In this document: positions 3,572-29,654 of the stretch, one piece after another
How the letters are laid out: the number at the start of each line of letters is the position of its first letter
Position numbering within the stretch: position 1 is the first letter of the stretch
Source of the DNA: Puniceicoccaceae bacterium
GTDB taxonomy: Bacteria > Verrucomicrobiota > Verrucomicrobiia > Opitutales > JAFGAQ01
Assembly: GCA_028285755.1 (NCBI GenBank)
Contig: JANQOQ010000014.1
Coordinates: 496,001 to 560,000 of the forward strand
Direction: 5' to 3'
Length of the DNA stretch: 64,000 nucleotides
Position numbers and translations under genes: made by a program
The notes under the pieces: generated by a model
Seen by the model: only the letters and a program-made list of their open reading frames with translations
Database searches by the model: none
What the model was told of the DNA's origin: nothing

Positions 3572-4480
3572 TTGCCAAATACAATTCGAAAGACTCTGCT
3601 CGCCAAGCTGCAAACCTCTCAAACGTTTGCAGAACTTGAGGCGGATTTTGAAGCAATCGCCGGCTTTCCGCTGAGATTGGTGGGTCCGTCGTGCATGGCT
3701 GCAGAAATGTCCGTGCCCTGCAGCAACAATGAATTATGCAAACATATCCGAAATCAGCCGAAGGGATTTGCGCATTGCCAGCGGTATGTCGAGGAGTTGG
3801 TGATCAAGGCCAACTCTCAGGATTTTTCGTGTAACCGGTGTGATGCGGGGCTAACCGGGTTTTGTGTACCTGTAAAGATTAACGGGGATACGCTGGGATA
3901 TCTCATTGCCGGCGGCTACCGGACTGGCGACTTAAATGCGAGTAACCGTAATCGCATGCGTCATCTGCTGAGGCGGATGAATATTCCGGATATCAATTCT
4001 GTTCTGGCGGAGTATGAACAATCGACACTTTCAGTAAGCGATGCTAAGCATGCGGCATTGCAGCGTTGGCTCAAGTTAGCGGCAGATACTTTGATCCGTA
4101 GCCTCGAACTGAGTGAGGATATGTCTGAGCGCCCCTTGCCGACATTCATTATAAAAATTTGCTCGGTTATCCAGCGGCAATATCAAAATCCCCCTAATCT
4201 GAAAGAGGCGGCAGAAATCTGTAATTTAAGTGAAGGCTATTTTTGCCGCGCTTTTCACAAGTTTACCGGACTGCGCTTTGTCGAGTATATTCATGCGGTG
4301 CGTATTGAGCATGTATGTGACTTACTGCTACATCGGGAAATGACCATTACCGATGCGGCATTTGAAGTAGGCTTTCACTCGCTTTCGCAGTTTAATCGTG
4401 TATTCCTGCGATTGAAGGGTATTTCGCCTCGCCAGTGGCGCAGTGAACAACTTTCGAAATTGAAACTTGAGGTAGCTTAG
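3572..4480 (+). CDS. PocR-domain AraC-family transcriptional regulator
   Basis: 302 residues. The N-terminal half (about 10-170) is a PocR ligand-binding domain. It shows the cysteine-rich pattern CSNNELCKHI and later CNRCDAGLTGFCVPV, then GYLIAGGYRTGD. The C-terminal 100 residues form an AraC-type double helix-turn-helix, with LKEAAEICNLSEGYFCRAFH and ITDAAFEVGFHSLSQFNRVF. The start is TTG at 3572; the next in-frame Met lies at residue 43, inside the PocR domain, so the TTG start is preferred. PocR domains are known from propanediol utilisation, where they sense small hydrocarbon derivatives. Here the neighbour to be regulated is most simply the divergent DUF4914 gene. Confidence 0.85.
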   Translation: MPNTIRKTLLAKLQTSQTFAELEADFEAIAGFPLRLVGPSCMAAEMSVPCSNNELCKHIRNQPKGFAHCQRYVEELVIKANSQDFSCNRCDAGLTGFCVPVKINGDTLGYLIAGGYRTGDLNASNRNRMRHLLRRMNIPDINSVLAEYEQSTLSVSDAKHAALQRWLKLAADTLIRSLELSEDMSERPLPTFIIKICSVIQRQYQNPPNLKEAAEICNLSEGYFCRAFHKFTGLRFVEYIHAVRIEHVCDLLLHREMTITDAAFEVGFHSLSQFNRVFLRLKGISPRQWRSEQLSKLKLEVA

Positions 4481-8700: not shown

Positions 8701-8978
8701 GTGCGGCCCCAGTCCATTTTTCCGGCTAGATCCTGCTTAATCCCTGAACTGGAATCCTGAGTGTTAATATAGGCTGATTTGGAACCCCGATAAACATGGT
8801 TGGTCACTGTATTAATCGAGATCGTAGCATTACCTTGGGCACTCCAGTTATTTAAGTTTGTGGCATCTTCGAAACCGGAATTATCAAGAACAGATTCGGT
8901 GGGTACGATGGTCGCTTCTGAGCATAAGAGAAGCATAAATGCAAAGCTAGTGCATGTAAGTTTAGCTAACTTATTCAT
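5739..8978 (-). CDS. Secreted multidomain glycoside hydrolase-like protein (GH-A-type barrel with CBM/LamG-like modules)
   Basis: A 1079-residue protein with an N-terminal signal peptide (LAKLTCTSFAFMLLLCSEA). Modules in order: a CBM4/9-like jelly roll (about 30-180); a LamG/DUF1080-like concanavalin fold (about 225-380); a TIM-barrel-like catalytic segment (about 410-760); and two tandem related LamG-like modules (about 765-920 and 925-1079). The last two share NDNNRYT-LYRD and KVSG-QT. In the barrel segment VENEPNY (Glu476) fits a clan GH-A acid/base and ATEWSEA (Glu599) the nucleophile, 123 residues apart. The first barrel strands are not evident and a LamG-like module sits where they are expected. 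I cannot assign a GH family. A LacI-type operator lies upstream (9088-9102), so it belongs to the sulfated-glycan regulon. Confidence 0.7.
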   Translation of the reverse strand: MNKLAKLTCTSFAFMLLLCSEATIVPTESVLDNSGFEDATNLNNWSAQGNATISINTVTNHVYRGSKSAYINTQDSSSGIKQDLAGKMDWGRTYMLSGRVKLDSSETRGRISIRVVAEVNGITYPQSGSISLSVADSGSGWHYINGIYDYNTNDVPDDIYLLITSDAGALKFYVDEIDVIRLETGLFNVNPASFISTLGAETTRRFANLQGIFDQVAASNRDVVNDVWSVSGGTYDQPFPHSGSSSYYHASPNTWTDYELEVSINIDTGTNSSNVSIGAFHTTASVYKLEINPSRGKLSLIKQFDNGVSQVLVSEDGYTINFDQFYDYKLVVNATTDTIEAYFDGTLELSHSDDSISEGGISLSTFRTNASFDDVTVTEIGTSTVLYSNTFSTAGSDSGWVTNYSTAYANDTSIGAEDVPAVLSLSSYDPSNATTAGKIIIPTTTSDPTESKVLDTIEEFVEAVGSSYSIVAVENEPNYKFTTADRTPDTNGDIPAVEWMKKIAQRLHDTINDPANSANLGHLRISTGSMDDAYKAFTDENSYRAGVPGVFLDAMIEWGNTDDNIDYIDLHMHQANIEESANKIAYLQSRAQKPIIATEWSEAMILNSWMNQSIDSTFLSNSGLPAAVKTTISTNADYVKACYENPVTGTEWGDFVESSPLTETYLQNAVDLFNQAGIVLTSYGAMRQYGSTKFDMKQLYANLTADLSSSNEYQANHTYVTQFQNIDRALPAPENQVKIDHFENGTGNWNAVQGTWSITSSPERYSQTKTTGVGYTEFDNVNLVDSHVSVEITPTAFSGSGNSVGLMARYTDNNNRYTALYRDSTNELIIQRKVSGTQTTLATTSYTMNTNQNYLFELVMIDQNLKLYVDHNLELEVTDTDTTLASGETGLYTFNTTATFDNYDVRLGRYIDDFESGSAPKWTATNGTWAVNTSNEYEQSSTSGTAFSTLDDLGWSDYAIEAYITPTAFTGSSNSIGINVRYTDNNNRYTLIYRDATNEFVLLKKVSGVQTVLWELPGMTLNENSTYLLKVEVVGSEIRAFLENRILGATTDSDLTSGKVGFFTFNTSGTFDDVKVSEL

Positions 8979-9087: not shown

Positions 9088-9102
9088 GTATTATCGTAAT
9101 AC
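9088..9102. promoter_or_regulatory. LacI-type operator in front of the 1079-residue hydrolase gene
   Basis: GTATTA-TCG-TAATAC: two perfect 6-bp arms around a 3-nt centre, 109 bp upstream of the start at 8978. It is one of a family of matching sites across this locus (see 15263, 15302, 16757 and 20601). It implies that this gene has its own regulated promoter rather than relying on readthrough from the fucosidase operon. Confidence 0.65.
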
Positions 9103-9174
9103 AGGCCTGAGCTCTATACTGCCCTAAAGGGTAGGATAAGGCTAATAAGCAGCCTTTGGCTGAAGCGCTAATTC

Positions 9175-10632
9175 TTAATCCTGAATTCCGGATATTTTTA
9201 GAGTCCAGGCATATCTCCCAGCGAATTGGGAGGGATTCAGGCTCGGCATTTCAACTTCAAGATCATTTCCAACCTGAGACCACTTTAAGGGTCTCTCAAA
9301 GCCCAACAGGGTGATTTCACCATTTGAATCTACAACCACATCACGCACTCGCACCTTTTTATCGGGAAATTGGGTTAGGATCGCATAGACTGTGCTTTCC
9401 TTACGGGTGAACCACATTTCTTTGCGGGCAAACCCTTCATCCGGTTCCAGGGTGAGACTCATAATATCATACTCGATATTGTAATCGCCACGTTCCTGCT
9501 TGGGTATCTCACCTTCTGTCCACTGTACGGATTCCTTCCAAAGGGTGGTATCATAAATGGCTTCTCCATTTACGTTTAGCCATTCACCGATTTCCATGAG
9601 TCGCTCCTGCATGATAGTGGGGATGCGCCCGTCTGCGGTGGGTCCCACATTCAACAGGAAGTTGCCGCCCCGACTCACGATATCGACAAACATAAAGATG
9701 AGTTCCTGAGCCGAATTATAATCGTGGATGTTTTCAGCGCGGTTGTATCCGTAGGAAAAGCCCATACCCCGGCTTTCCTCCCAGGGTTTGTCAGTCGTAG
9801 AGAGGCCCGAAGTATACTCAGTAGTAAAATATCCGCCGTGATTATGTCGTGTTCCCTTACCCCAGCGGTCATTGATGACGATATGGTCCTTGCTGGGCGC
9901 TTCATTGTATAGCCATGCGAGCAGCTCTTCAGATCGCCAGGTTTCAGCGGGATGGTCCCATTCGCCATCACTAAAGATCACTGAAGGCGCATAGCGGCTT
10001 ACAACGTCCTTAAATTGGGGGATCATATGCTGATCTACGAAAAGGTCTACGTCGGCCTGGTAGAGTGGATTATACCATTCGTAGAGTGAATAATAGATGC
10101 CCATTTTTAGGGGAGTCTCGCGAACCGCATCGGTCAGCTCACCCAGCAAATCGCGCCCCGGTCCAGTATCAACGCTGTTCCAAGGCCGACCCCAGGATTG
10201 ATCTGCTTCTGCACTCGGCCAGAGGCAATACCCGTCGTGATGCTTGGACGTGAGAACCACATATTTTGCGCCCGAATCCTCAAAAAGCTGAGCCCATTCC
10301 TGGGGGTCAAAAAGTTCAGCAGTGAACTGAGGAATGAAGTCTGCATAGGTGAAACCCGGTCCATAATGGTCGTTGTGAAAGGTGGTTACCGCCTCATGAC
10401 CTTTGCGGCCTGGGTTCCTTAAGTCTTGCCAATACCACTCCGAATATTGCCCTACTTTTGTATATGCTGGGACAGCATACGGCCCCCAGTGTATGAAAAT
10501 ACCAAACTTCGCATCGCTCCACCATTCTGGCGTGGGCCGGCTATCAATGGACTCCCAATTCGCCTCATATTGAGTCGCTACTAAGATTGTGGATAATGAT
10601 AGGAAAAAAAAGCCACTTTGAATAATTTTCAT
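9175..10632 (-). CDS. GH29 alpha-L-fucosidase, secreted
   Basis: 485 residues. An N-terminal signal peptide (IIQSGFFFLSLSTILVAT) is followed by the GH29 barrel. Motifs typical of the family are visible: WWSDAKFGIFIHWGPYAVPAY (residues 37-57), the SKHHDGYCLW motif (129-138) and IFSDGEWD, whose Asp222 fits the catalytic nucleophile. LLNVGPTADGRIP is the late conserved loop, and a C-terminal beta-sandwich follows. GH29 enzymes remove alpha-L-fucose from glycan ends with retention. It is the last gene of a four-gene operon (sulfatase, sulfatase, GH29, GH29), 13 bp after its paralogue. A preference for sulfated fucans is inferred from the sulfatase neighbours. Confidence 0.93.
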   Translation of the reverse strand: MKIIQSGFFFLSLSTILVATQYEANWESIDSRPTPEWWSDAKFGIFIHWGPYAVPAYTKVGQYSEWYWQDLRNPGRKGHEAVTTFHNDHYGPGFTYADFIPQFTAELFDPQEWAQLFEDSGAKYVVLTSKHHDGYCLWPSAEADQSWGRPWNSVDTGPGRDLLGELTDAVRETPLKMGIYYSLYEWYNPLYQADVDLFVDQHMIPQFKDVVSRYAPSVIFSDGEWDHPAETWRSEELLAWLYNEAPSKDHIVINDRWGKGTRHNHGGYFTTEYTSGLSTTDKPWEESRGMGFSYGYNRAENIHDYNSAQELIFMFVDIVSRGGNFLLNVGPTADGRIPTIMQERLMEIGEWLNVNGEAIYDTTLWKESVQWTEGEIPKQERGDYNIEYDIMSLTLEPDEGFARKEMWFTRKESTVYAILTQFPDKKVRVRDVVVDSNGEITLLGFERPLKWSQVGNDLEVEMPSLNPSQFAGRYAWTLKISGIQD

Positions 10633-10645
10633 ATACTAGTATTTT

Positions 10646-12118
10646 CTAAAATTTTACCTCTATAACATAACCTAATTCAGCCTCAAAGCTATTAGGAATT
10701 TTAACGCTTAGGCCAGCCTTGGTTTGTTTGTAGTCTACAACTCCATAGCCCAAAATCTCTACGGATTGGATTTCACCGATACTTTGGGCAAAAGACTTGA
10801 TAACTACACTATCAGAGGGTGTCGCCAGGGAAATAGCAAAAAGGGTATTCTTTTTGTGGGTAAACCAAAAGTCCTCAGTGCTGAACTCGGCATTAAATCC
10901 ATCGACTTCACGAGCCCTTGTGCCTCCCATATTGATGTTTGTCGGTCCTTCCTTAAAAGTTGTCCACTTTTGTGTCCCGTAGATCGCTTCACCGTTTATT
11001 TTGAGCCATTCTCCAACGGTATTTAAGTTATGGATGCTTTCAACAGGAACTCCGCCCAACCCTGTTGGCCCAATATTGAGCATGTAATTACCCCCCTTGG
11101 AGACGATCTCGATGAGCCAGTATAAAATCTCAGTGGGTGATTTCCAATCCTGGTCGTAGCCATTGAATCCCCAGGAATTGTTGAAAGTTCCCACCGTTTC
11201 CCAAGGTTTTATCATTTCATCCAGATTCTCAGGGATTTTGTTATCACCCGGTATTGAATAATCCCCGAAGCCATTCCCAATGCGGTGATTGATAAGGATT
11301 TGAGGCTGGATATCGTAGACGATCTTGTAAAAATTCCAACTTTGTTCGGCATCCATCCTCCAGGGCATATCATACCAGAGTAGCTTCATATTGGGATATT
11401 GACGCATCAATTCCTTTACCTGAGGGTAGGCCTTGTTCTCCAGATACTCTTCAAAAGTATTCGGGCTGGGATCCCAGGTATTGGCACCAAAGTCAATGGG
11501 TCTATTAAATTCCAGAGTCCACCCTTTATTCCTGTATTCCTCGGTGCGTCCGTCTGAACCATCTGCCCAGTCAATATTGTGCGAATAATAGATTCCGAAC
11601 TCTATATCGGCCTTTTTGCAAGCTTCGTGAAGCTCAGCGATGATATCCCGCTTAAAGGGAGTGGCGTCCATTACATCGAACTCGCTGACTGCTGAATCGT
11701 AGAGTGCAAATCCATCGTGGTGCTTTGCCGTTATGACCAGGTATTTCATTCCCGCAGCCATGGCAAGTTCTGCAATTGCATCTGCATCAAAAAGAATGGG
11801 GTTAAAATTGGTAGCTAGTTGCGCATACTCCTCTCGTGGGATATGCGCTTTATATTGAATCCACTCGGATATGGTGGGTCCCCGGTTTTCCATATCGTGC
11901 GTTTTTACTCCATTCCAGACACCCGCTGGAATGGAATAAAGGCCCCAGTGAATAAACATGCCGTACTTGGCATCCTGAAACCACTCAAAGGTCTCCTGCT
12001 TGGAGGCGTTCATCGCTTTCCATTCGTCAGTATGAACTTCGGGAATTTTATCCTGGGGTGCGCTATTCAGGTTTAAGCTGATAAAGATAAGGGTGATTAG
12101 GAACAGACTTTTTTTCAT
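10646..12118 (-). CDS. GH29 alpha-L-fucosidase, secreted (second paralogue)
   Basis: 490 residues with a signal peptide (KKSLFLITLIFISLNLNS). Family motifs are WFQDAKYGMFIHWGLYSIPAG (46-66), AKHHDGFALYDS (131-142) and LLWYDMPWRM, whose Asp250 fits the nucleophile. MLNIGPTGLGGVP is the late loop. The nucleophile context (WYDMPW) differs from the neighbouring enzyme (FSDGEWD), so the two GH29 enzymes likely act on different linkages or sulfation patterns; this is an inference. It lies 5 bp downstream of a sulfatase gene and 13 bp ahead of the other fucosidase, within one operon read from about 15.2 kb. Confidence 0.93.
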   Translation of the reverse strand: MKKSLFLITLIFISLNLNSAPQDKIPEVHTDEWKAMNASKQETFEWFQDAKYGMFIHWGLYSIPAGVWNGVKTHDMENRGPTISEWIQYKAHIPREEYAQLATNFNPILFDADAIAELAMAAGMKYLVITAKHHDGFALYDSAVSEFDVMDATPFKRDIIAELHEACKKADIEFGIYYSHNIDWADGSDGRTEEYRNKGWTLEFNRPIDFGANTWDPSPNTFEEYLENKAYPQVKELMRQYPNMKLLWYDMPWRMDAEQSWNFYKIVYDIQPQILINHRIGNGFGDYSIPGDNKIPENLDEMIKPWETVGTFNNSWGFNGYDQDWKSPTEILYWLIEIVSKGGNYMLNIGPTGLGGVPVESIHNLNTVGEWLKINGEAIYGTQKWTTFKEGPTNINMGGTRAREVDGFNAEFSTEDFWFTHKKNTLFAISLATPSDSVVIKSFAQSIGEIQSVEILGYGVVDYKQTKAGLSVKIPNSFEAELGYVIEVKF

Positions 12119-12123
12119 AAATA

Positions 12124-13560
12124 CTAGCGTTTTGTAAGTGTGTGTGGGTCTATATAATGATTGATTGTACCCTCCAGCTCATCCGGACAGTCATAAATAT
12201 GTTTCATATTGGCTCTGATATCACCACTATCGACATCGAGCGGATGGGTGGTATCTAAATAAGGAATCTCACCTCCTTCGGTCAGGAAGTCATTTTGCTG
12301 TTTCATCCAGGTGAACATCTTATCTTTGAGCTCCAGCTTTATCGCTTTGTATTGAGGATCTTTGGCTAAATTGGTGAGCTCGTATGGGTCATTCCATGTG
12401 TCGTAAAGCTCCTCTTCGGGAATATCCGGGTGCTTCTGTGCACCCAATAAGCGAAAGGGGTCAATTGGTTTTCCCATTTCTTCATCCATCTTGATTCGCT
12501 CCAATGTATTGAAGTTGTGTATATAGTGATAGCGTGGGCCCCTGGCGGAACGTCTTGGGAATATATGAGCATTCCATACGCCTTGTTGGGTCATTACCCC
12601 GAAAACAGTGGTATTATGATCTGCTATATCCCCTTTGAGCACTCGATAAAAACTACTTCCATCTACTTCTTTGAGAGGCTTGCCACCTGCCAGCTCAACT
12701 ATTGTTGGAAGTATATCTACAAAACTGGTTAGTGCCTGGGTGCGTCCGGGTTTTATTTTATTGGGCCACCTTACTATAAAGGGAACATTCAGGCCACGGT
12801 CATAAACCGTAAATTTCTCAGTAGGTCCATTCCCGTGATCGGACGCATACATGAAGACTGTGTTCTCTTCCAGGTCATGCTTATTTAACAGAGTGAGTAT
12901 CTGCTCCAGTTCACCTTCTTTCGTTTTTACATTATCGTAGTAGCCGGGAAGACTTTTGATTTGTGCGGGAGTCATGTAAGGCCTGGTGATCACTTTATCA
13001 GCAGGGAAATCTGGATTATACGGATAAGGTCCGTGAGGGTAGGAGGAGGTTACAAACAAACAAAACGGCTTGTTTCCCACCTCAGATAAGTAGGTATCAA
13101 TTTCATCCAAATGGAGTGGTGAGTGGCCTCTTGAACCGATATACCTATCCCAGCGATAAACAGTCTCCGGTTTCACGTGAACCTTGCCCGCCAATACCAC
13201 TTCATAGCCTAAGGGTTTGAGTGCGTCATAGACCGTTTGGGTGCCATCCCGGGAGGCGGTGTGATTGATGAATAATCCATTGCGAATGGGATATTGGCCT
13301 GTAAATAGTGATGCGCGACTGGGGGCGCAAATCGCTTGAGTGGTGAACATTCGCTCGAATACCAAACCTTCCTTCGCCAGTTTATCCGTTACCGGGGTTA
13401 GGTTGATGGGCATTCCATAGCATCCATAATCTGCCTTGGATTGATCATCACTCAGAAAGAAGACAAAGTTGGGTTTATTGGCAGCAAATGTGCCTAATTT
13501 GCTGCATATCAATAAAAGAATGAGCAACCCAGGGAATCTCATAGGTGAAAAAATCCTCAT
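12124..13560 (-). CDS. Secreted sulfatase (S1 family, N-sulfoglucosamine-sulfohydrolase-like)
   Basis: 478 residues with a signal peptide (FPGLLILLLICSKLGTFAA). The metal-binding start FFLSDDQSKADYGCYG and the signature CAPSRASLFTG with Cys78 (to become formylglycine) are intact. The ASDHGN motif supplies further metal ligands. The C-terminal half has the ELYDTWNDPYELTNLA segment common in this S1 group. It hydrolyses sulfate esters in the periplasm or outside. A maturase (FGE or anSME) is needed but none is encoded in the window. It sits 15 bp after a second sulfatase and 5 bp before a fucosidase, in the same operon. Confidence 0.9.
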   Translation of the reverse strand: MRIFSPMRFPGLLILLLICSKLGTFAANKPNFVFFLSDDQSKADYGCYGMPINLTPVTDKLAKEGLVFERMFTTQAICAPSRASLFTGQYPIRNGLFINHTASRDGTQTVYDALKPLGYEVVLAGKVHVKPETVYRWDRYIGSRGHSPLHLDEIDTYLSEVGNKPFCLFVTSSYPHGPYPYNPDFPADKVITRPYMTPAQIKSLPGYYDNVKTKEGELEQILTLLNKHDLEENTVFMYASDHGNGPTEKFTVYDRGLNVPFIVRWPNKIKPGRTQALTSFVDILPTIVELAGGKPLKEVDGSSFYRVLKGDIADHNTTVFGVMTQQGVWNAHIFPRRSARGPRYHYIHNFNTLERIKMDEEMGKPIDPFRLLGAQKHPDIPEEELYDTWNDPYELTNLAKDPQYKAIKLELKDKMFTWMKQQNDFLTEGGEIPYLDTTHPLDVDSGDIRANMKHIYDCPDELEGTINHYIDPHTLTKR

Positions 13561-13575
13561 CCAACCACCAATCCT

Positions 13576-15189
13576 TTAATGAAAAAACCTTTCGGCTTCT
13601 TGCGGTTTGCCGGTATTTGCTGTGGCTCCCGCTTTTCGACTTTCTTCAAAGAAATCCTGCATGAGATTCTGGAGTTCTGAAAGTGTTTCACTGTAGTGAG
13701 GATCGGCAGCAACATTCGAGGTTTCCATGGGATCTTTGAGGTAGTCGTAGAGCTCTCGTCCATGGACTAACTCCGGGTCATACGGATCGGATGTTCGCCA
13801 ATTGTTTATCCATTCGGTATAGCGATACCTTTCAGTGCGAATTGAGTAGCCCATGAGATCTCCCCGCGGGTATTGACTGACTGCTATGGGTTTTACCGTT
13901 TGTTTTTGCCCCTTCATCAAGGGCGTTAGGCTGACACCATCGAGATCTACAGGGGCTTTAAGCCCGGCAAGTTCACAGAGGGTAGGGAACACATCGATAA
14001 ACTCTGTGGGTGCGCTGGTGACAACCTGTTTATCAATTCCGGGTGCACTTATGACTAGCGGTGATCGGGTCGCCTGTTCAAAGTTAGAATGCTTGTGCCA
14101 AAGCCCATGATCCCCTAAATGAAATCCGTGATCGCCCCACAAAACGATGATCGTATTATCTGCAATACCAATATCTTCCAAAGCGTCGAGCAACCTGCCC
14201 ACCTGAGCATCAATGTAGGAAGTGGCCGCATAGTAACCATGAATGAGTTCGATTTGTGTTTCTTCGGGTAGGTGATCTTCGTCGTTTTCGGAATAGCTGT
14301 CGAAGTTAGGAGGTATATTAGCGTATCCCTTCAGCTCACCATTAGTATGATAAGCGACATCCACTGCATTTTTACTCTTATGCTGATAGGGGTGGACGGA
14401 TATTTCCGATCGGTCATAGAGATCCCAGTATTTCTTTGGAGCGGTAAATGCCAGGTGAGGTTTCCAGAACCCCACGGCGAAAAAGAAGGGCTTTTCACGC
14501 TTGCTAAGGTCTTTCAGTATTTCAACCGCGCCCATCGCTATCCCTCCGTCCGTGTAGGCATTATCGGGCAAATTGTAATCAAGGCGTTCCACTGGAGGAT
14601 TGGCTTCCAGAGTTTTCATGAATCTGAAAATGTCATTAAATTGTGTTAATCCTTTGGCCCTGGCTTCGTTGTATGCATTACGTGCCTTATCGCTTTGGTA
14701 GTGACCTGGAATCGGTTCGGGGTGATCCGGATGAAATATATGGTCAGCGCGAGTCTTATGGGGGATACTCCAGGACTCGGGATCAACGCGGTCGTTTACA
14801 TTGCGCGGATCATAGATTTTCCCTATCGCGGTTGTCTCGTAACCACTATTTTTGAAGAATTCGGGCATAGTCACGGTTTCGGGTCGTATTTCCCGCATAC
14901 GCTGGCCGAAGAACCATATGCCCAGCGTATCCGGTCTTAAACCAGTCATAATACTGGCACGGGAGGGTCCGCATAACGCCTGCTGACAGTGATTATTTTG
15001 AAAAACGGTGCCTGTTTCGGCAAGACGATCAATATTCGGAGTGATGGCAAAATCATCCCCGAAACAATTTATGGAAGGTTTTAAGTCATCGACTGCGATG
15101 AAAAGGATGTTTGGAGGTTTTTTTGCGATCGATAGACCACTAATGAATGCAGCGATAAGCAATAGAGTGTAGGCTTGTTTTCGTTTCAT
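13576..15189 (-). CDS. Secreted sulfatase (S1 family, iduronate-2-sulfatase-like)
   Basis: 537 residues with a signal peptide (KQAYTLLLIAAFISGLSIA). The conserved start NILFIAVDDLKP and the signature CGPSRASIMTGLRPDT (Cys73 as formylglycine precursor) are typical of the iduronate-2-sulfatase-like group (S1_7). WGDHGFHLGDHGLWHKHSN gives the metal and sulfate-binding His/Asp set. It is the first gene of the four-gene operon; the promoter region upstream holds two LacI-type operators and the divergent sulfatase gene at 15.4 kb. In this context the substrate is more likely a 2-O-sulfated fucose or uronic acid than iduronate; this is an inference. Confidence 0.92.
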   Translation of the reverse strand: MKRKQAYTLLLIAAFISGLSIAKKPPNILFIAVDDLKPSINCFGDDFAITPNIDRLAETGTVFQNNHCQQALCGPSRASIMTGLRPDTLGIWFFGQRMREIRPETVTMPEFFKNSGYETTAIGKIYDPRNVNDRVDPESWSIPHKTRADHIFHPDHPEPIPGHYQSDKARNAYNEARAKGLTQFNDIFRFMKTLEANPPVERLDYNLPDNAYTDGGIAMGAVEILKDLSKREKPFFFAVGFWKPHLAFTAPKKYWDLYDRSEISVHPYQHKSKNAVDVAYHTNGELKGYANIPPNFDSYSENDEDHLPEETQIELIHGYYAATSYIDAQVGRLLDALEDIGIADNTIIVLWGDHGFHLGDHGLWHKHSNFEQATRSPLVISAPGIDKQVVTSAPTEFIDVFPTLCELAGLKAPVDLDGVSLTPLMKGQKQTVKPIAVSQYPRGDLMGYSIRTERYRYTEWINNWRTSDPYDPELVHGRELYDYLKDPMETSNVAADPHYSETLSELQNLMQDFFEESRKAGATANTGKPQEAERFFH

Positions 15190-15262
15190 GGGGTCAGGGT
15201 ATTAAGTTTTATTACCTAAAACTATTTATGCTCGCTTCCATTTTATCAACAAGCCCGTTTTT

Positions 15263-15277
15263 GTGTTATGGTAATAC
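15263..15277. promoter_or_regulatory. LacI-type operator between divergent sulfatase genes, site 1
   Basis: GTGTTA-TGG-TAATAC, one mismatch from the perfect GTATTA-N3-TAATAC form. It is 74 bp upstream of the start of the leftward sulfatase operon and the nearer of two sites to it. Confidence 0.6.
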
Positions 15278-15301
15278 GTTTGATAAAAGACAAATCTTTT
15301 A

Positions 15302-15316
15302 ATGTTACCATAATAC
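15302..15316. promoter_or_regulatory. LacI-type operator between divergent sulfatase genes, site 2
   Basis: ATGTTA-CCA-TAATAC, two mismatches in the left arm and a perfect right arm. It is 89 bp upstream of the ATG at 15406 of the rightward sulfatase. Its centre lies 39 bp from site 1, close to four helical turns, so the two sites are on nearly the same face and could bind cooperatively. Confidence 0.55.
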
Positions 15317-15405
15317 TCTTTAGGATTTGTAGCCCTTTAAGTTGGAGTTAACTTAGGATTAATGACTGAATGATTCTGTCGGAAATCAAGGAACCCCTAA
15401 TTGTA

Positions 15406-16719
15406 ATGAAAACTATTGCATTATTCTTTCTATATTCGATTGCTCTGCTTCCACAGCTTTTAGATGCGTCCAGCGGTCCGAAGGATCGGCCTAATATCTT
15501 ACTGATCATGGCGGATGACTGTGCAGCCGATGAACTGGCATGTTATGGAAATACTGAACATGAAACTCCGGTTTTAGATAAATTGGCAGAGATGGGGACC
15601 CGATTTGAGACATTTTGGTCTACCCCGATTTGCAGTCCTTCAAGGGCCTTGATCATGACGGGTCGTTATGGCTTCAGGACGGGCTGGTATCACAATAATA
15701 TGAAGAAGAATGTTCCGCTCTCGGACGAAAACATAATCTTCTCTCAGCTATTACAAGAAGCCGGGTATCGGACCGCCGTGGCGGGTAAGTGGCAATTACC
15801 GGGTACTACCATCGAATATGGATTTGATGAATCTTCGCTTTGGGCTTATGAGCATATGCTACCCGAGGGGGTGAAGCATGAGGGGTATGATAGCCTTAAT
15901 CCCGATGCCTATAACTACAAATACATGGCACGCTACTGGCATCCCAGTATAATCCATAATTATGACTATTTTCCAACAACGAACGATGATTACGGGCCAG
16001 ATGTGCACTCGGACTTCATTATCGATTTTGCGACCCGGGAAAGCGATAAACCCTTCTTTGCCTATTATCCAATGATCCTCACCCATGACCCCTTTTACCC
16101 AACACCCGATACGGTAGAGGGCGATGAAGGAAAATTGGGACCCACGGATATGAAGCGCAACTTTAAGTCCAATATGGAATATATGGATAAAATGGTCGGC
16201 AAGATTATCGATGCTTTGAAAGAAAGTGGGCAGCTTGAGAATACAGCCATTATCATTACCACTGATAATGGTACGGTTACCCGTGGAAAAGGAGTATCCA
16301 AGGAGATCGGAGTCTATGTGCCGCTGATCGTCTACTGGCCGGGAGTCATCGAAAACAAAGGAGTCAGGCGGGAGCTCGCAGACTTTTCGGATATCTTCCC
16401 TACACTCATGGATATTGCGGATGTCGAAATCCCAGAAGACTATGTTTATGATGGCAGAAGCTTTTTGCCTTTGCTCACGGGTGAAGCCTATGAAGAGCGT
16501 GAGTTTATCTTCTCCTATTTAGGAAAAGATCGTCTGGTTCGCGATAAGCGATGGCTGCTCGAAGGGGATGGGCGTTTCTTTGATTGCGGGGAAAACCGGA
16601 ACCCCAGGGATTACAAGGGATACAAGGACGTCACCGATTCCAAAGACCCGGAAGTGCTGGCGGCGATGGCTCGCTTCGAGATGTTCCTGAAAGACAAACC
16701 TGCACCTGTAGCAAACTAA
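15406..16719 (+). CDS. Secreted sulfatase (S1 family)
   Basis: 437 residues from ATG 15406, chosen because KTIALFFLYSIALLPQLLDA then forms a proper signal peptide; an upstream in-frame ATG at 15370 would add twelve residues before it. The metal-binding start NILLIMADDCAADELACYGN and the signature CSPSRALIMTGRYGFRTG (Cys76) are intact, and TTDNGT supplies late metal ligands. It is a single-gene unit between a divergent sulfatase operon and the TonB-dependent receptor, under the two LacI-type sites at 15263 and 15302. S1 subfamily not assigned. Confidence 0.9.
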   Translation: MKTIALFFLYSIALLPQLLDASSGPKDRPNILLIMADDCAADELACYGNTEHETPVLDKLAEMGTRFETFWSTPICSPSRALIMTGRYGFRTGWYHNNMKKNVPLSDENIIFSQLLQEAGYRTAVAGKWQLPGTTIEYGFDESSLWAYEHMLPEGVKHEGYDSLNPDAYNYKYMARYWHPSIIHNYDYFPTTNDDYGPDVHSDFIIDFATRESDKPFFAYYPMILTHDPFYPTPDTVEGDEGKLGPTDMKRNFKSNMEYMDKMVGKIIDALKESGQLENTAIIITTDNGTVTRGKGVSKEIGVYVPLIVYWPGVIENKGVRRELADFSDIFPTLMDIADVEIPEDYVYDGRSFLPLLTGEAYEEREFIFSYLGKDRLVRDKRWLLEGDGRFFDCGENRNPRDYKGYKDVTDSKDPEVLAAMARFEMFLKDKPAPVAN

Positions 16720-16756
16720 GTCGAGGATTAATCATTAATTGTGACTTCCTTTAAGA

Positions 16757-16783
16757 AATTGAGTATTACCATAATACTCAATT
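16757..16783. promoter_or_regulatory. LacI-type operator upstream of the TonB-dependent receptor gene
   Basis: A perfect palindrome with 12-bp arms (AATTGAGTATTA / TAATACTCAATT) around the centre CCA, 98 bp upstream of the receptor start. This is the best-formed member of the operator family and likely the strongest site. A promoter should lie between it and 16882. Confidence 0.75.
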
Positions 16784-16881
16784 AAAATTGTTATAAGTAA
16801 GTATTATTGATTTTCTCATAACATATCAAATTCCAATACCCTATTGGAACATTTACTTACCCTGAAATTAAACACTATATC

Positions 16882-19407
16882 ATGAATAAGCACGTAGGTG
16901 ATATGAACGTATATTCGATATACACTACCGCAAGGCGTGGTATTTTTTGCGCCTTTACTCTGCTCTTTTTAACCTTAATCGGTGTCCAGGCACAATCGGA
17001 TGATGACATCCTAATACTCGACCCATTCCTTATTGAGTCGGAAGATGAGGCGGTGCAAGTCACCCAATCGATCAGTGCGACGCGATTTGCATCCGACATC
17101 TCTGAATTGCCTTTCACCGTGAATGTTCTCACCGAACAACTCATTGAAGACACACTGGCCGTTGATCCGGAAGAAATGCTCCAGTTTGCGGGTAACGTTG
17201 TTACCGGTGAGGGGATAGGCAATTTTAACAGTCAATCGAATGGTCAGGTGCGCCTGCGTGGATTTCCTACCCAGTTTAATCTGGTGGATGGTTTTCGCGT
17301 GAATACCTCTTTTTCCATTCCTACGAGTGCTGTGGCACGGGTAGAAGTGGTAAAAGGACCTACATCACTCCTATACGGCGCGGTGCCACCGGGGGGTGTT
17401 GTGAACTATATCATGAAGATCCCTGAATCCGAGTTTGGAGGCAGAATTCAATATACGTACGGGCAATACGATCACCATCGTGCGGAAGCTCAAATCACAG
17501 GACCGATCAATGATAACATTCGCTACATGATTGTGGGTACCTGGGAGGACCGGGAGTATGAATTACCCGGCGCATCCCGAACGATTGAGAATTTCAACCC
17601 AATGCTTGAATTCGATTTTCTGGATAAGCGCGGAAACCTCCTGATTAGCTACTATAATCAGACTTTGGAACAAACAGGCATGCAATGGCGTCCCCCTTTA
17701 AAGCGCTTCACTTTTGAAGATGAGTATGGACGTTTGCATCATGAAGTGGATGAGGATTATCCGACCCTCAATTACAATCAAAGAGACAGTGGAGGAATCT
17801 CTGCGCGTGATAACGAATCTCTTTTTGCACGTTTGCGCTTTACCTTTAATGAGACCTACACGCTGCGTGCGGCATTCAGGCATGAAGTTGATGATTGGAA
17901 CAACGTCAATCAGACAGGAATGCCGGCGGTCTTCATTAATGGGGTTGCGAATGCTACGATGGACCCAAGCCACCCCAATTATGCTTCCAGCCAGGGACCT
18001 TTGTGGGATGTTGGAATCCAGGAAACGGACAATCAAAACTTTCAGTTAAACCTTTTGGCTGACTATGAAACCAAGTGGGGGCGTTTCCAGGTCATGCCGG
18101 GTATTGACTACAATAGTCAGGACTTTTGGTTCTATCGTGCACGTGCAGGCAGAATTGGCCCCAATGGACGTACCGGGAATTTCCGTTCACCCGGAAGAAG
18201 AAGTCTTTTCGATGATCCTTCTACCTGGAGCTGGGAACAGCCTACAGCAGTTCAATACGTAGTGGACGATCCCAATACTGCAGAGCTCGAAGGTTACGGC
18301 CTACTGCGTAATAATGAGGGTACGTCCGGTGAGTCTACTGACTTTTATATCTATACGGCAGGTTACTTCTTTGATGATAATCTCGTGCTGACTTATGGTT
18401 ATCGTCAGAGTGATTATGAATCAGAATCTATATCTTCGGATCGCGTAGTGCTAGCCCGTGGCAGTGATCGGTTTGTTTCCGATAGCAATGAGGATTCGGA
18501 ATCCATTCAACAGGCGGGCATTGTTTATAAGCTTATCCCGGACAAATTGCATATCTATGCGAACTATGCGGAGTCTTTTGAGCCTCAGTTCCGTTCGATT
18601 GAGCAAATCGACCCGGACAACAATCCATTCGATACCGATCTCAACGGGGACGGTATATTGGAGCCTGATTTTTCAGATAACAATATTGTTTTGGCTGCTC
18701 CTTTATTTGGAGAAGGCGCAGAACTTGGTTTAAAAACAGAATTCTTCGATGGCAAACTAACGGTTTCAGCGGCTCTCTTTGAGGCTACCAACAATAATCT
18801 GATTCGAAACATTATTGTGACTACGGATCCGGGTAGCTATTTACCCTGGTTTCCGAATCTGGATGATTCACTCGCTCAGGCCTATGCGGAAGCTGAAGGG
18901 GGAGGTAATGTGAGACTGGATGAATTCCAGGTCCAATCCGGAGAAGAGGAAGCAACCGGTTACGAAATTGAAGTAACTGCTACCCCACTGAGTAACTGGA
19001 ATGTTCGCATGACCTATACGAATCTGGATGCTAAGCTGATCAGTGATGTGACCCGACCTGAAGTAAATGGTCGTGTGTTGCCGAATTCTCCCGAGCACAA
19101 TTTTAACATCTACACCCGTTATGCCTTTAGGGAGGGTATTCTGGATGGGCTTTCTGTAGGGGGTACGGTTGATTACCTCAGTGGTCGCACCAGCAGAGCT
19201 CCACAGCAAGGCAATGGCGGCACATGGTTAGGTGAACGTACATTAATCAATGTATTCACCGGATATCGCTGGAGCACAGATAAGCTTACGTATCGTGTTA
19301 ACTTAAGTTTGGCAAATATCACCAATGAATTTACCTCCTCGGGTCCCGGTTTTGGACGCTTGGTTCCTCGATCAAGCTTCAGATTCCGATTTGGAATCGA
19401 TTTCTAA
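16882..19407 (+). CDS. TonB-dependent outer-membrane receptor
   Basis: 841 residues. The start may be ATG 16882 or the in-frame ATG at 16903; both leave a hydrophobic signal segment ending in GVQAQ. The mature N-terminus has an acidic stretch with ILILDPFLIESEDE, usual in Opitutae receptors, then the plug domain (ISELPFTVNVLTEQLIED, VRLRGFPTQFNLVDGFRV, VEVVKGPTSLLYGAVPPGGVVN). A 22-strand-type barrel follows, ending FRFRFGIDF with the C-terminal aromatic expected for BAM insertion. It imports a large ligand using TonB energy. In this setting that is likely a glycan fragment, although the plug resembles FhuE-type receptors and there is no SusD partner. It is a single-gene unit with an operator upstream and a strong terminator downstream. 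Confidence 0.92.
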   Translation: MNKHVGDMNVYSIYTTARRGIFCAFTLLFLTLIGVQAQSDDDILILDPFLIESEDEAVQVTQSISATRFASDISELPFTVNVLTEQLIEDTLAVDPEEMLQFAGNVVTGEGIGNFNSQSNGQVRLRGFPTQFNLVDGFRVNTSFSIPTSAVARVEVVKGPTSLLYGAVPPGGVVNYIMKIPESEFGGRIQYTYGQYDHHRAEAQITGPINDNIRYMIVGTWEDREYELPGASRTIENFNPMLEFDFLDKRGNLLISYYNQTLEQTGMQWRPPLKRFTFEDEYGRLHHEVDEDYPTLNYNQRDSGGISARDNESLFARLRFTFNETYTLRAAFRHEVDDWNNVNQTGMPAVFINGVANATMDPSHPNYASSQGPLWDVGIQETDNQNFQLNLLADYETKWGRFQVMPGIDYNSQDFWFYRARAGRIGPNGRTGNFRSPGRRSLFDDPSTWSWEQPTAVQYVVDDPNTAELEGYGLLRNNEGTSGESTDFYIYTAGYFFDDNLVLTYGYRQSDYESESISSDRVVLARGSDRFVSDSNEDSESIQQAGIVYKLIPDKLHIYANYAESFEPQFRSIEQIDPDNNPFDTDLNGDGILEPDFSDNNIVLAAPLFGEGAELGLKTEFFDGKLTVSAALFEATNNNLIRNIIVTTDPGSYLPWFPNLDDSLAQAYAEAEGGGNVRLDEFQVQSGEEEATGYEIEVTATPLSNWNVRMTYTNLDAKLISDVTRPEVNGRVLPNSPEHNFNIYTRYAFREGILDGLSVGGTVDYLSGRTSRAPQQGNGGTWLGERTLINVFTGYRWSTDKLTYRVNLSLANITNEFTSSGPGFGRLVPRSSFRFRFGIDF

Positions 19408-19471
19408 GTGAGGAAATTTTGATCTCAACCGTTTCCATTTCCTCATAATACAAGGAAATTAAGCTGGTTAT

Positions 19472-19508
19472 GGGATGTAGCCCGGTAGGGTTGCATCCCT
19501 TTCTTTTT
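19472..19508 (+). terminator. Rho-independent terminator of the TonB receptor gene
   Basis: A 12-bp stem with G-T wobbles (GGGATGTAGCCC / GGGTTGCATCCC) closes a GGTA loop, followed by TTTCTTTTT. It begins 64 bp after the receptor stop and directly abuts the end of the convergent lacI gene, so it may stop transcription from both sides. Confidence 0.88.
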
Positions 19509-20574
19509 AATTGAGCTGCTTAATGGAGGGGCCGTCTACCCAACGCACAGGGAAGCTCACTTCGATTGGGGACTCGGGTAGGCCAAACATGGAGTGGGCA
19601 ATTTTGGTTGTAAGCCTCTCCACGGCATAAGCACCCTGTAGATTCTTCTGGTGGTCTATTCCGGCAAATTCGACACCTGGCTTATAAACATAGTCATATT
19701 GTACTATGCCTACATCTTCAGGAACGTTTAGGCCCATGTTATCTTCCAGTATGGCTTTGACTGATACTCCGAGGCAGATGATCGCATCCGGTTTGTATTT
19801 TTTAAACCAGGGTATGAATTCTTCCTCAAGCTTACCCGCATCGGTAATGTCCTTTTGGGTCTTTTGGTTTTCTGAGATACCTATCGGGATGTTATCAATG
19901 CCTTCAACATGCTTTTGGCTGTAGAGTGCCCCCATTTCCAGGCGGTTTAATGACTGCGCCAGTGCCCAACGGGAAAAGAAATACCCAATTTTGCGGTATC
20001 CCCTCCGATGCAGGACCTTAGTCGCCAGGTAAACACTGTCCGCATCATCAGCCGCCACCGTATCAATTCGGGGTGACCAAAGCGTGCGACCCAGTTGAAC
20101 GGATGCTACCCGGCTTAGATCCATGTGAAGCCGGGCAGGCCCGCCTGACATCGGCATAACTACGACTCCGCGTATTCCCCGGCTTCGAATGATCGAATCC
20201 ATACGCTTCTCAGTCATGCCCGGGGAGGAAATAAATAAATAATCAAAGCCATAACCAAGCTCTTCTGCACGCTTTTCAAAGGAATTGAAGAAAAGTTGAA
20301 GGTGCTGATGATAGGCCAAGTCGGATTTTTGTGCGGCGGGCCAGTCCACTAATATTCCAAGGGTCTCGGCAATGCGCTTCTTTTTGTGCGTGCGCACATA
20401 CTTCATGGCTTCATTGACTCGTGCATTCGGAGCATAGCCCATTTCTTGAGCCACCTTATTAACGCGCACGCGAGTAGCCTTAGAAATCCGGGGCGAATTC
20501 CTGAGCGCCAGACTGACTGTGTTTTTGGAACATCCCACTAAGTCAGCGATCTGTTTCAACGTGGGGGGTTGCAT
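19507..20574 (-). CDS. LacI-family transcriptional regulator of the glycan locus
   Basis: 355 residues. The N-terminal HTH is clear: TLKQIADLVGCSKNTVSLALRN and then the hinge region RVNKVAQEMGYAPNARVNEA. A periplasmic-binding-protein-like sensor domain follows (about 70-340). LacI proteins of carbohydrate loci usually repress until a sugar or oligosaccharide binds. The gene sits in the middle of the locus, between the receptor and the rightward six-gene operon. A degenerate copy of the shared palindrome lies 27 bp ahead of its start. It is the only LacI-type regulator in the window and so the natural candidate to bind the GTATTA-N3-TAATAC sites. Confidence 0.92.
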   Translation of the reverse strand: MQPPTLKQIADLVGCSKNTVSLALRNSPRISKATRVRVNKVAQEMGYAPNARVNEAMKYVRTHKKKRIAETLGILVDWPAAQKSDLAYHQHLQLFFNSFEKRAEELGYGFDYLFISSPGMTEKRMDSIIRSRGIRGVVVMPMSGGPARLHMDLSRVASVQLGRTLWSPRIDTVAADDADSVYLATKVLHRRGYRKIGYFFSRWALAQSLNRLEMGALYSQKHVEGIDNIPIGISENQKTQKDITDAGKLEEEFIPWFKKYKPDAIICLGVSVKAILEDNMGLNVPEDVGIVQYDYVYKPGVEFAGIDHQKNLQGAYAVERLTTKIAHSMFGLPESPIEVSFPVRWVDGPSIKQLN

Positions 20575-20600
20575 GATGAGCTACAGAAGAATCTGCAGCT

Positions 20601-20615
20601 ATATTACCATCATAC
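20601..20615. promoter_or_regulatory. Degenerate LacI-type operator between lacI and the rightward operon
   Basis: ATATTA-CCA-TCATAC. It keeps the CCA centre and the spacing, with two mismatches between arms. It is 27 bp upstream of lacI and 87 bp upstream of the beta-helix gene start at 20702, so it could serve autoregulation and control of the rightward operon. It is weaker than the other sites. Confidence 0.45.
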
Positions 20616-20701
20616 AGATTTGTTTTTGTAAAGTCCTTAATGGTTTTTGATACATGAAGAATAGGTTGGTTGTCAGCCGAGTTTACAGCTACACTTACCC
20701 C

Positions 20702-22987
20702 ATGAAATTACATCTTATATTCTTACTCCTGGCCATGTGCCTGAATTCGTTTTTATTCGGAAATGAGTATTTTGTTTCCAAATCCGGGAACGATTCTAAT
20801 GAGGGCACTGTAGAAAAACCTTTTTTAACGATCAGTAAGGCTGCAGCGGTGATGCAGGCGGGTGACCTATGTTATGTCGGCGATGGCATTTACAGTGAGA
20901 CGGTAAGACCTCAAAATTCAGGAAACCTGAATGCGCCGATAAGCTTTAAGAAGCTTAATCCAAATGGGAAGGTAGTCATTAGCGGTGTCGATGTGATTTC
21001 GAGAGATCGTTGGGAGCAGGTATCCGAGACTCAATTTAAAGCATCTGTTGAAATGCCTCTGGATCATGAAAATCAGGTGTTCCTCGGTGATCAGATGCTC
21101 TTTGAAGCCCGCTGGCCAAACACAGGCAATGTATTGCTTGAACCAACATTGGCCACAATGGAAGCGGATACCACAAAGGCACTCATTGTGGATTCAAATC
21201 TGCCGGATTACGATTACACCGATGCTGAAGTATGGATTCACGCAAAGTATTATTGGTCGAATTGGACTACCTTCATAACATCAAATCCAAATCAAGGTGA
21301 GCTGGAAATTATAGATACGGCACCCTTTCATCCGGGTCGTAGACATGTGGCGGCTGAAGGCGCCGATTACTATGTCTTTGGAATCAAGGATGCCCTCGAT
21401 GCGGATAATGAGTGGTACTACGATGATCAGGAAAAAGCGCTCTATGTTTCGAGAAATGATGGTGAATTGCCACTTGGTAATTACTATACCAAACAGAGAA
21501 TGGTGGCTTTGGATCTTCGGGATCGCGCTCACATACACTTTGAGGGAATTGATGTATTTGCGGCTACGATAGAAACAGATGCAAGCTCATACAGGTTGGT
21601 TCTCGACCGCATGCAACTCCTGTATCCTTACTTTTCCTCTAGGGCAAAGAATAGTGGCTCACAGGGGGATAAAGGGGTACGCATGCTTGGAAAAGAGTGT
21701 ATCATTAAAAACAGTGAAATCGCATACAGCTCGGGCACCGGAGTTGCTCTGTTTGGCGAAGGAAACCAAATCCTCAACTGCTATATTCATGATCATGATT
21801 TTATCGGAACTTATGCAAGCTGTGTTCAATTGGGTGGCAAGGGGAATGTTATCAGCCACAGCACTCTGACGCGGAGTGGGCGCAGTGTGATCGATTACCG
21901 GGCGATGTATCAGGCTCTGATCCAATACTGTGATATGAGCCATGCAGGCATGCTGACCAGTGACCTGGGGCTTACTTATGGAAATGTGATAGAGGGAGGG
22001 AACTCGGTAGTCAGATATAATTTACTGCGGAATAATGACGGCAGTCATTATAATATGGGATTATACTATGATCACGGAACGCAGAATATAATTTCACATC
22101 ATAATATTGTTTATGGGGTTAATTACTCTGGATTTCAGCTCAACCAATATGCCTCGTATCACCTGGTCTACAACAATACTTTCATCTCGAGCAGATATGG
22201 ATTTCGTAATGTTTGGGGAAATCAGTATGATCCTGAGCTGAATGGGGTTCGTTTCGCAAATAACGTATTCAGCAATACCGCTGAAACGGCAGCCAGCAAT
22301 TATCATTGGAGCCATAATCTCACGGAGTATGATGGCTTTGATACCTCTTCGCCCTTTAAGGTAGACGAAAGCCTCTTAGGCAGGGGAAAATACCTGGAAG
22401 GTATTTCGGAAGTTGAAGAAGGGGTCCGTCCGGGATTGGGTGCGCTTGAAACGCCAGATTCGGCATTCAAGGTCGGCCACGATTTTGAAAATCCACCCGT
22501 AATTGATACTACGCGCAGTAAGCCGTTGCATCGCAACCTGATCGTAAATTCGGCTTTTGAGCATGAGGATAATCTATCGCCCTGGAAGGCAGTGGGTGAA
22601 GTAGAAAAAATCAGTCATGGCTTAAAAGAGCAGATGCATGAAGATACCTGGGAAGGGCGCATGGGGCGTCATTCCATCAAACTTTCGGCTGCTGGCAGTG
22701 AGGTATACCAGGAGATTTCCGGTTTTGAGCCCAATGCAACCTATCAGTTTATCGCTTACCTCCGGGTCGATAGCGAAGAGCAGGCGATCATCGGAGTCCG
22801 CTACGCAGATGGTAGCCAGTTTCAGTCCCCCCATGTCACCTTTGGGGCTCCCGGTTGGCGACGTGTGAACCTCTCTTTCGATACCTATAACGCTGACGAA
22901 GCTATCACCGTTTTTGTTAAGCGGCAAAGTGATGGTGAAGGCAGTGTATTTCTCGATGACACCGGCCTGGTGCTGGTGAGCAAATAA
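20702..22987 (+). CDS. Secreted right-handed beta-helix protein with C-terminal CBM-like domain
   Basis: 761 residues from ATG 20702, chosen because KLHLIFLLLAMCLNSFLFG is then an N-terminal signal peptide; an in-frame ATG at 20654 would place 16 extra residues before it. The mature start YFVSKSGNDSNEGTVEKPF and DLCYVGDGIYSETV are the DUF1565-type opening of many beta-helix polysaccharide-active proteins. The coils run to about residue 560 (NVISHSTLTRSGRSVIDYR, SHHNIVYGVNYSGFQLNQY). A CBM4/9-like jelly roll closes the protein (about 620-760). GH141-like (fucosidase or xylanase) or a lyase are candidates; I cannot fix the family. It heads the rightward operon, 13 bp before a sulfatase. Confidence 0.82.
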   Translation: MKLHLIFLLLAMCLNSFLFGNEYFVSKSGNDSNEGTVEKPFLTISKAAAVMQAGDLCYVGDGIYSETVRPQNSGNLNAPISFKKLNPNGKVVISGVDVISRDRWEQVSETQFKASVEMPLDHENQVFLGDQMLFEARWPNTGNVLLEPTLATMEADTTKALIVDSNLPDYDYTDAEVWIHAKYYWSNWTTFITSNPNQGELEIIDTAPFHPGRRHVAAEGADYYVFGIKDALDADNEWYYDDQEKALYVSRNDGELPLGNYYTKQRMVALDLRDRAHIHFEGIDVFAATIETDASSYRLVLDRMQLLYPYFSSRAKNSGSQGDKGVRMLGKECIIKNSEIAYSSGTGVALFGEGNQILNCYIHDHDFIGTYASCVQLGGKGNVISHSTLTRSGRSVIDYRAMYQALIQYCDMSHAGMLTSDLGLTYGNVIEGGNSVVRYNLLRNNDGSHYNMGLYYDHGTQNIISHHNIVYGVNYSGFQLNQYASYHLVYNNTFISSRYGFRNVWGNQYDPELNGVRFANNVFSNTAETAASNYHWSHNLTEYDGFDTSSPFKVDESLLGRGKYLEGISEVEEGVRPGLGALETPDSAFKVGHDFENPPVIDTTRSKPLHRNLIVNSAFEHEDNLSPWKAVGEVEKISHGLKEQMHEDTWEGRMGRHSIKLSAAGSEVYQEISGFEPNATYQFIAYLRVDSEEQAIIGVRYADGSQFQSPHVTFGAPGWRRVNLSFDTYNADEAITVFVKRQSDGEGSVFLDDTGLVLVSK

Positions 22988-23000
22988 CAAAAAAACCTTA

Positions 23001-24512: not shown

Positions 24513-24516
24513 TCGG

Positions 24517-25944: not shown

Positions 25945-25948
25945 GCAC

Positions 25949-28111: not shown

Positions 28112-28147
28112 CGCATATTGAAATCACTTTATCGAATGATTACCGCC

Positions 28148-29620: not shown

Positions 29621-29654
29621 TGGGTAACCCGTAGATTCTAAGGATAGGCTGGCC

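What the first reader, a model, noticed from the sequence alone, without database searches (positions are those of the whole stretch)
9088..20615. One palindrome family links all glycan-degradation units into a LacI-type regulon
GTATTA-N3-TAATAC sites lie at 9088 (perfect), 15263 (1 mismatch), 15302 (2), 16757 (perfect, arms extend to 12 bp) and 20601 (degenerate). Each is in the promoter region of a separate unit: GH-A-like protein, sulfatase-GH29 operon, single sulfatase, TonB receptor, and lacI/rightward operon. The centre is three bases, often CCA, giving an odd-length site unlike the even, CG-centred operator classical for LacI/GalR. The sites are seen; binding by the protein encoded at 19507-20574 is inferred.
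Basis: partly seen in the sequence, partly recalled or inferred. Interest (0 to 1): 0.75.

Follow-up and report, generated by a model that had tools for sequence, protein, structure and literature searches.

The report
Local sugar-gene switch with odd operator
Five copies of one short mirror-image DNA site sit in front of every gene unit of a sulfated-sugar degradation cluster and next to a LacI-type repressor gene; the switch is ordinary, but its site has an odd-numbered centre without the usual CG, a design that turns out to be a rule for one LacI subgroup in this bacterial lineage although it is rare (4%) among the LacI regulators surveyed so far.

Summary
GTATTA-N3-TAATAC sites are at 9088, 15263, 15302, 16763 (inside a 27-bp palindrome starting at 16757) and 20601. 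Together they cover all six transcription units of a sulfatase / GH29 / TonB-receptor cluster, including the lacI / rightward-operon divergence. The clustering is far beyond chance (about 0.06 sites expected in the intergenic DNA, 5 found; P about 4e-9). The genome holds only two perfect sites, both here, and all nine other one-mismatch sites lie inside coding frames: a local regulon, not a global one. Best reading: a local LacI-family repressor of sulfated, fucose-containing glycan use; binding and inducer are inferred. Around about 140 LacI-type genes of the class I found locus-specific operators that rarely carry the central CpG. One subgroup (recognition helix M-[TSA]-[VA]-S-R) uses TGTTA-N3-TAACA: 11 of 35 promoters perfect, 20 of 35 within one mismatch, no perfect hit at any other spacing and none in 106 other LacI promoters. 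Odd centres are known elsewhere (lacO1; 4% of surveyed LacI regulators), so this is a new variant of a known kind. Hinge type alone does not fix the parity.

The parts
9088..9102 (-). operator 1, GTATTACGATAATAC read towards the target gene; 117 bp before the 5739-8978 start
   Evidence: perfect match, one of only two in the genome
15263..15277 (-). operator 2, GTATTACCATAACAC read towards the leftward operon 15189->9175
   Evidence: 1 mismatch
15302..15316 (+). operator 3, ATGTTACCATAATAC, read towards the sulfatase at 15370; centre 39 bp from operator 2
   Evidence: 2 mismatches
16757..16783 (+). operator 4, 27-bp palindrome AATTGAGTATTA-CCA-TAATACTCAATT, core 16763-16777, before the TonB receptor
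   Evidence: perfect core, one of only two in the genome
20601..20615 (+). operator 5, ATATTACCATCATAC, between lacI (34 bp) and the rightward operon (45 bp)
   Evidence: 2 mismatches
19507..20574 (-). LacI-family regulator, HTH CSKNTVSLALR, hinge PNARVNEAMKYVR (Ala-Met where the canonical lever Leu lies)
   Evidence: no relative above 35% identity among the listed hits from 373 genomes of the order
5739..8978 (-). secreted 1079-aa protein with LamG / GH32C-like beta-sandwich modules; central domain unassigned
9175..10632 (-). GH29 alpha-L-fucosidase, closest solved relative 7pls (named tissue alpha-L-fucosidase)
10646..12118 (-). second GH29 alpha-L-fucosidase
12124..13560 (-). sulfatase
13576..15189 (-). 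sulfatase, first gene of the leftward operon
15370..16719 (+). sulfatase, single unit
16882..19407 (+). TonB-dependent outer-membrane receptor
20654..22987 (+). right-handed beta-helix protein, probably glycan-active (N-terminal match to xylosidase 3vst; Beta_helix)
23001..24512 (+). sulfatase
24517..25944 (+). MFS_2 sugar:cation symporter
25964..28111 (+). GH3 glycoside hydrolase
28118..29620 (+). sulfatase
29655..31007 (+). sulfatase, last gene of the rightward operon

Best explanation
The five palindromes are the operators of a local LacI-family repressor encoded at 19507-20574. A dimer is expected to bind each site through two HTH heads reading GTATT(A) half-sites placed around a single central base (TATTAC-C-ATAATA), keeping all six units of a sulfated, fucose-containing glycan degradation cluster, its own gene included, off until a sugar released by the fucosidases and sulfatases and taken up by the cell releases it. 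Shown: the sites, their promoter positions, their statistical clustering, the LacI gene and the absence of a genome-wide set. Inferred: binding by this LacI, repression rather than activation, and the inducer. The odd, CpG-less centre is not a quirk of this locus: in the class a LacI subgroup uses odd-centred 13-bp operators (shown statistically for the M-[TSA]-[VA]-S-R type, TGTTA-N3-TAACA).
For: Five sites in the promoter regions of all six units, P about 4e-9; only two perfect sites in 4.25 Mb, both here, and the other nine one-mismatch sites all in coding frames. LacI-family gene in the middle with a site in its own promoter. Independent LacI loci of the lineage carry their own local palindrome family that includes the lacI promoter. 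Half-site follows recognition-helix position 22: Arg with TG (L068, L093, L129, L109, L139), Gln with CC (L074), Glu with TC (L096), Leu with TT or TA (L108, L091, window). In 35 LacI genes with M.VSR-type helices, TGTTA-N3-TAACA stands in 20 promoters within one mismatch (11 perfect) against a shuffled mean of 0.15, with no perfect hit at any other spacing and none in 106 other LacI promoters; about half of these genes come from an out-of-sample test on new genomes.
Against: No binding data. No ortholog above 35% identity was found, so there is no phylogenetic footprint of these exact sites. An AraC-type regulator lies about 4.6 kb from the first site (3572-4480). The operator at 20601 is among the weakest, so autoregulation is the least certain part.
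Confidence: 0.82

Rival explanations
1. The palindromes are operators of a different regulator (for example the AraC/PocR-type protein at 3572-4480 or a regulator elsewhere), and the lacI gene only sits nearby.
For: Binding has not been shown; an AraC/PocR-domain gene lies at the edge of the cluster.
Against: AraC-type proteins usually bind asymmetric or direct-repeat sites (general knowledge), and no site lies near the araC gene. Other lacI loci of the lineage have analogous odd palindromes in the lacI promoter itself, spelled according to the LacI recognition helix. There is no genome-wide set as expected for a distant global regulator.
Confidence: 0.12
2. The palindromes are chance or structural elements (AT-rich promoter DNA, terminators).
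For: The bare pattern is only slightly over-represented in the whole window (31 against 23.7).
Against: Five sites in promoter intergenic DNA, P about 4e-9; 2 of 1000 shuffles reach the family score; the terminator scan does not list them.
Confidence: 0.03
3. LacI binds the sites but acts as an activator or dual regulator rather than a repressor.
For: The sites lie 34-117 bp upstream of start codons and no clear -35/-10 pair around them could be identified, so their place relative to the promoter is unknown.
Against: Most LacI-family regulators of catabolic genes are repressors (general knowledge). In the M.VSR relatives the operator begins 12-17 bp after a TTGAC box, that is on the -10 region, the place of a repressor.
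Confidence: 0.12

Closest known systems
Local LacI-family sugar regulons (Ravcheev et al. 2014, PMC4052901)
   Same: One LacI gene inside the target cluster, palindromic operators in target promoters and in its own, sugar catabolic targets, sites mostly 30-140 bp before start codons.
   Different: 96% of surveyed LacI regulators have even operators and most of those have a central CpG; here the centre is odd, C-C/G-A. The string 'Verrucomicro' does not occur in that paper's text.
E. coli lac operator O1 and the odd motifs of LacR, GalR and EbgR (4% of the survey)
   Same: Odd-centred pseudo-palindrome bound by a LacI-family dimer.
   Different: lacO1 is one base longer than the ideal even operator; the 13-mers here (TGTTAnnnTAACA, TATTACCATAATA) are one base shorter than the canonical 14-mer TGTAAACGTTTACA, if the TG contact is taken as register (inference).
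Polysaccharide utilisation loci
   Same: TonB receptor, sulfatases, glycoside hydrolases and sugar importer in one cluster, apparently co-regulated.
   Different: No SusD partner among the cluster proteins scanned with Pfam; the regulator is LacI-type rather than a hybrid two-component system, SusR or a sigma/anti-sigma pair.

Membership tests
LacI/GalR transcription factor family | N-terminal LacI HTH domain (PF00356) | tested here: met
   54.1 bits, cut-off 27, residues 5-50
LacI/GalR transcription factor family | C-terminal periplasmic-binding-protein-like sensor domain | tested here: met
   Peripla_BP_3 26.9 bits, just over the cut-off of 26.5; phmmer matches to LacI-family chains 5ysz, PurR, CcpA over both domains
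LacI/GalR transcription factor family | Hinge helix with lever Leu (LacI L56) that opens the central base step (typical, not strictly defining) | tested here: not met
   Hinge reads P-N-A-R-V-N-E-A-M-K: Ala at the Leu position, then Met; most relatives in the lineage have Leu-Met or Val-Met there. Alignment by the Pro; recalled LacI numbering
LacI/GalR operator (canonical) | Even-length palindrome with central CpG (typical: 1173 of 1303 surveyed regulators, PMC4052901) | tested here: not met
   All five sites have a three-base centre between 6-bp arms, CCA or CGA
Local LacI regulon | Operators confined to the cluster around the regulator gene | tested here: met
   Other one-mismatch sites all in coding frames; total at control level
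Local LacI regulon | Autoregulation site | tested here: inconclusive
   20601 lies 34 bp before lacI but also 45 bp before the divergent operon and is degenerate
Local LacI regulon | The protein binds the sites and is released by a pathway sugar | not testable with these tools
   Needs gel shift or footprint and expression data

The most novel reading that the evidence does not exclude
In this bacterial class LacI-type regulators have largely given up the central-CpG operator. A subgroup with a changed hinge (Met after the lever position) binds odd, 13-bp operators one base shorter than canonical, which would require a different hinge geometry and a different way of bending the operator centre than in LacI, PurR and CcpA. 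The window's regulator, with Ala-Met at the lever, is an extreme case.
Probability: 0.4. Interest if true: 0.62.

Novelty: new variant of a known kind. Interest (0 to 1): 0.46.

Why it matters
Regulon searches that assume even, CG-centred LacI operators would miss many regulons in this class. The operator rules found here (TGTTA-N3-TAACA for M.VSR regulators; a separate local palindrome for each lacI locus) give a way to assign the many sulfatase and glycoside-hydrolase clusters of these polysaccharide degraders to regulators and inducers. They also pose a direct structural question: how does a LacI dimer with a changed hinge read a 13-bp, CpG-free operator?

Tried and rejected
Global regulon: rejected, hits elsewhere are at control level. 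Close orthologs for footprinting: none; genome contigs gave two relatives at 26-28% identity, and the listed hits from 373 genomes of the order were at 35% or less. 'Hinge type alone sets parity': rejected as a strict rule. Genes with an xM..R hinge show an excess of perfect palindromes in the lacI promoter at spacing 1 (20 against 5.4) and also at spacing 2 (14 against 4.5); the ..L..YR hinge group shows its excess only at even spacings. 'The CCA centre is a -10 box': not supported, no convincing -35 partner at proper spacing was found, although in the M.VSR relatives the operator does overlap a -10 region. L069 AGTGTA-TACACT is a strong local family but absent from its lacI promoter, so not counted. 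Several top-scoring families (L109, L115, L157, L184) look like tandem or dispersed repeats and were set aside.

Full report
Observation. The only correction is that 16757 is the start of the full 27-bp palindrome and the 15-bp core starts at 16763. The units served are: the 1079-aa secreted protein (5739-8978), the leftward operon with two sulfatases and two GH29 fucosidases (15189 to 9175), a single sulfatase (15370), the TonB receptor (16882), lacI (20574 leftward) and the rightward operon (20654 to 31007: beta-helix protein, three sulfatases, MFS_2 symporter, GH3). The fucosidases and the six sulfatases point to a sulfated fucose-containing glycan; this is inference from family content.

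Chance. The genome (4.25 Mb, unnamed, 97% complete) has two perfect matches to GTATTANNNTAATAC, both in this cluster, and twelve with at most one mismatch, three of them here. All nine others lie inside predicted reading frames (two of these frames are short, 96 and 142 aa). In the cluster's 1428 bp of intergenic DNA 0.056 sites with up to two mismatches are expected and five are found (P 4.5e-9); an unbiased palindrome search ranks this family first, with 2 of 1000 shuffles as good. Genome-wide totals do not exceed the reversed-pattern control. So the family is real and local.

Regulator. The 355-aa protein is LacI-family by both domains. The genome has 18 matches to the LacI HTH family, 17 over the cut-off. 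It has no close ortholog: the listed relatives from 373 genomes of the order are at 35% identity or less. Its hinge, PNARVNEAMKYVR, has Ala where LacI has Leu56, followed by Met (LacI numbering recalled).

What the lineage shows. I fetched up to 20 kb around about 100 LacI-type genes of the order and looked for the best local palindrome family at each, with shuffles as control. Clear families that include the lacI promoter: TGTTAC-n-GTAACA (7 sites) and TCTAAC-n-GTTAGA (4 sites) at two other clusters of this same genome (L093, L096); CCTATC-n-GATAGG (L074), TTTGAC-n-GTCAAA (L108), TGTTA-nnn-TAACA (L129, L068, weaker L109, L139). All are odd. Others are even but without a consistent central CpG: GCTTTA-ta/ca-TAAAGT (L119), TTCAAA-nn-TTTGAA (L126), CTCATC-nn-GATGAG (L163), CTTACA-nn-TGTAAG (L166), GTCTAA-nn-TTAGAC (L130). 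The spelling differs from one lacI type to another, and the second base of the half-site in the odd families follows residue 22 of the recognition helix (Arg with G, Glu or Gln with C, Leu with T or A), which is what direct reading by the local LacI predicts.

Focused test. LacI genes whose recognition helix reads M-[TSA]-[VA]-S-R were tested for TGTTA-Nd-TAACA in their own promoters. In the first set perfect matches were at d=3 only. I then drew new genes from 384 genomes of the class and it held again. Pooled over 35 genes: 11 perfect and 20 within one mismatch at d=3; 0 perfect at d=0-2 and 4-8; 0 of 106 other LacI promoters perfect; shuffled promoters 0.15 on average; permuted half-sites 0 or 1. 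The odd centre is therefore a consistent property of this LacI subgroup across several families of the class. The genes are related, so 35 is not 35 independent events. The window's regulator (helix KNTVSL) is not in that subgroup but shares the odd centre and a Met-containing hinge.

Limits on the hinge idea. Genes with an xM..[VILMT]R hinge have an excess of perfect 6-bp-arm palindromes in their promoter at spacing 1 (20 against 5.4), but also at spacing 2 (14 against 4.5); genes with the ..L..YR hinge have it at even spacings only (spacing 1: 1 against 2.6; spacings 2 and 4: 8 each against 3.4 and 4.2). So hinge type is associated with parity but does not decide it alone.

Known context. 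In the large comparative survey of LacI regulators (PMC4052901) 1251 of 1303 have even operators, 1173 with a central CpG, 4% odd, about 90% local regulons, 72% autoregulated; the text has no occurrence of 'Verrucomicro'. My literature searches found no paper on LacI operators of that phylum in the held library.

Mechanism. Shown: sites, positions, clustering, regulator gene, class-wide association of one LacI type with odd operators. Inferred: binding, repression, inducer, dimer geometry. If the TG contact of Arg22 sets the register, the 13-mers are one base shorter than the canonical 14-mer, whereas lacO1 is one base longer; this is a hypothesis.

Noticed in passing
L039, L041, L044, L052, L129, L139, L189, L204 (lacI promoters of M.VSR regulators): TTGAC box, 12-17 bp, TGTTATnATAACA-type site, then ATG/GTG 0-7 bp later: the operator lies on the -10 region and the lacI mRNA would be leaderless or nearly so.
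   Followed up: partly
L093 (own genome C13:34300-54200): Second local LacI regulon of this genome: seven TGTTAC-n-GTAACA-type sites around lacI, a GH141 beta-helix protein, a TonB receptor and an MFS_2 symporter; in every site only one half keeps the C next to the central base.
   Followed up: partly
L096 (own genome C6:3000-22900): Third local regulon: TCTAAC-n-GTTAGA sites at lacI, sulfatase, GH28 and TonB-receptor genes.
   Followed up: partly
L091 (own genome C13:215200-235100), 9657, 9842 and 10930: CTTTAC-a-GTAAAG, CTTGAC-t-GTCAAG and ATTAAC-a-GTAAAG around a lacI gene in a cluster whose genes look like arabinose isomerase and ribulokinase by eye.
   Followed up: no
L249 (own genome C10:1222): GAATTACCATAATAA, intergenic, about 121 bp before a secreted protein with an F5/8 type C domain cut by the contig end; possible distant member of the window's regulon or chance.
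   Followed up: partly
L085, L119, L177: A separate LacI group (hinge WM/HM/RM) with the even operator family CTTTA-TA/CA-TAAAG or TTTTACATAAAA, no CpG.
   Followed up: partly
L069, 2178, 5102, 12198, 19613: AGTGTA-TACACT family at four promoters but not in the local lacI promoter; probably another regulator's operator.
   Followed up: no
window 1566-3485 and 3572-4480: DUF4914 protein and a PocR-domain AraC-type regulator just left of the cluster, without a close GTATTA-N3-TAATAC site.
   Followed up: no
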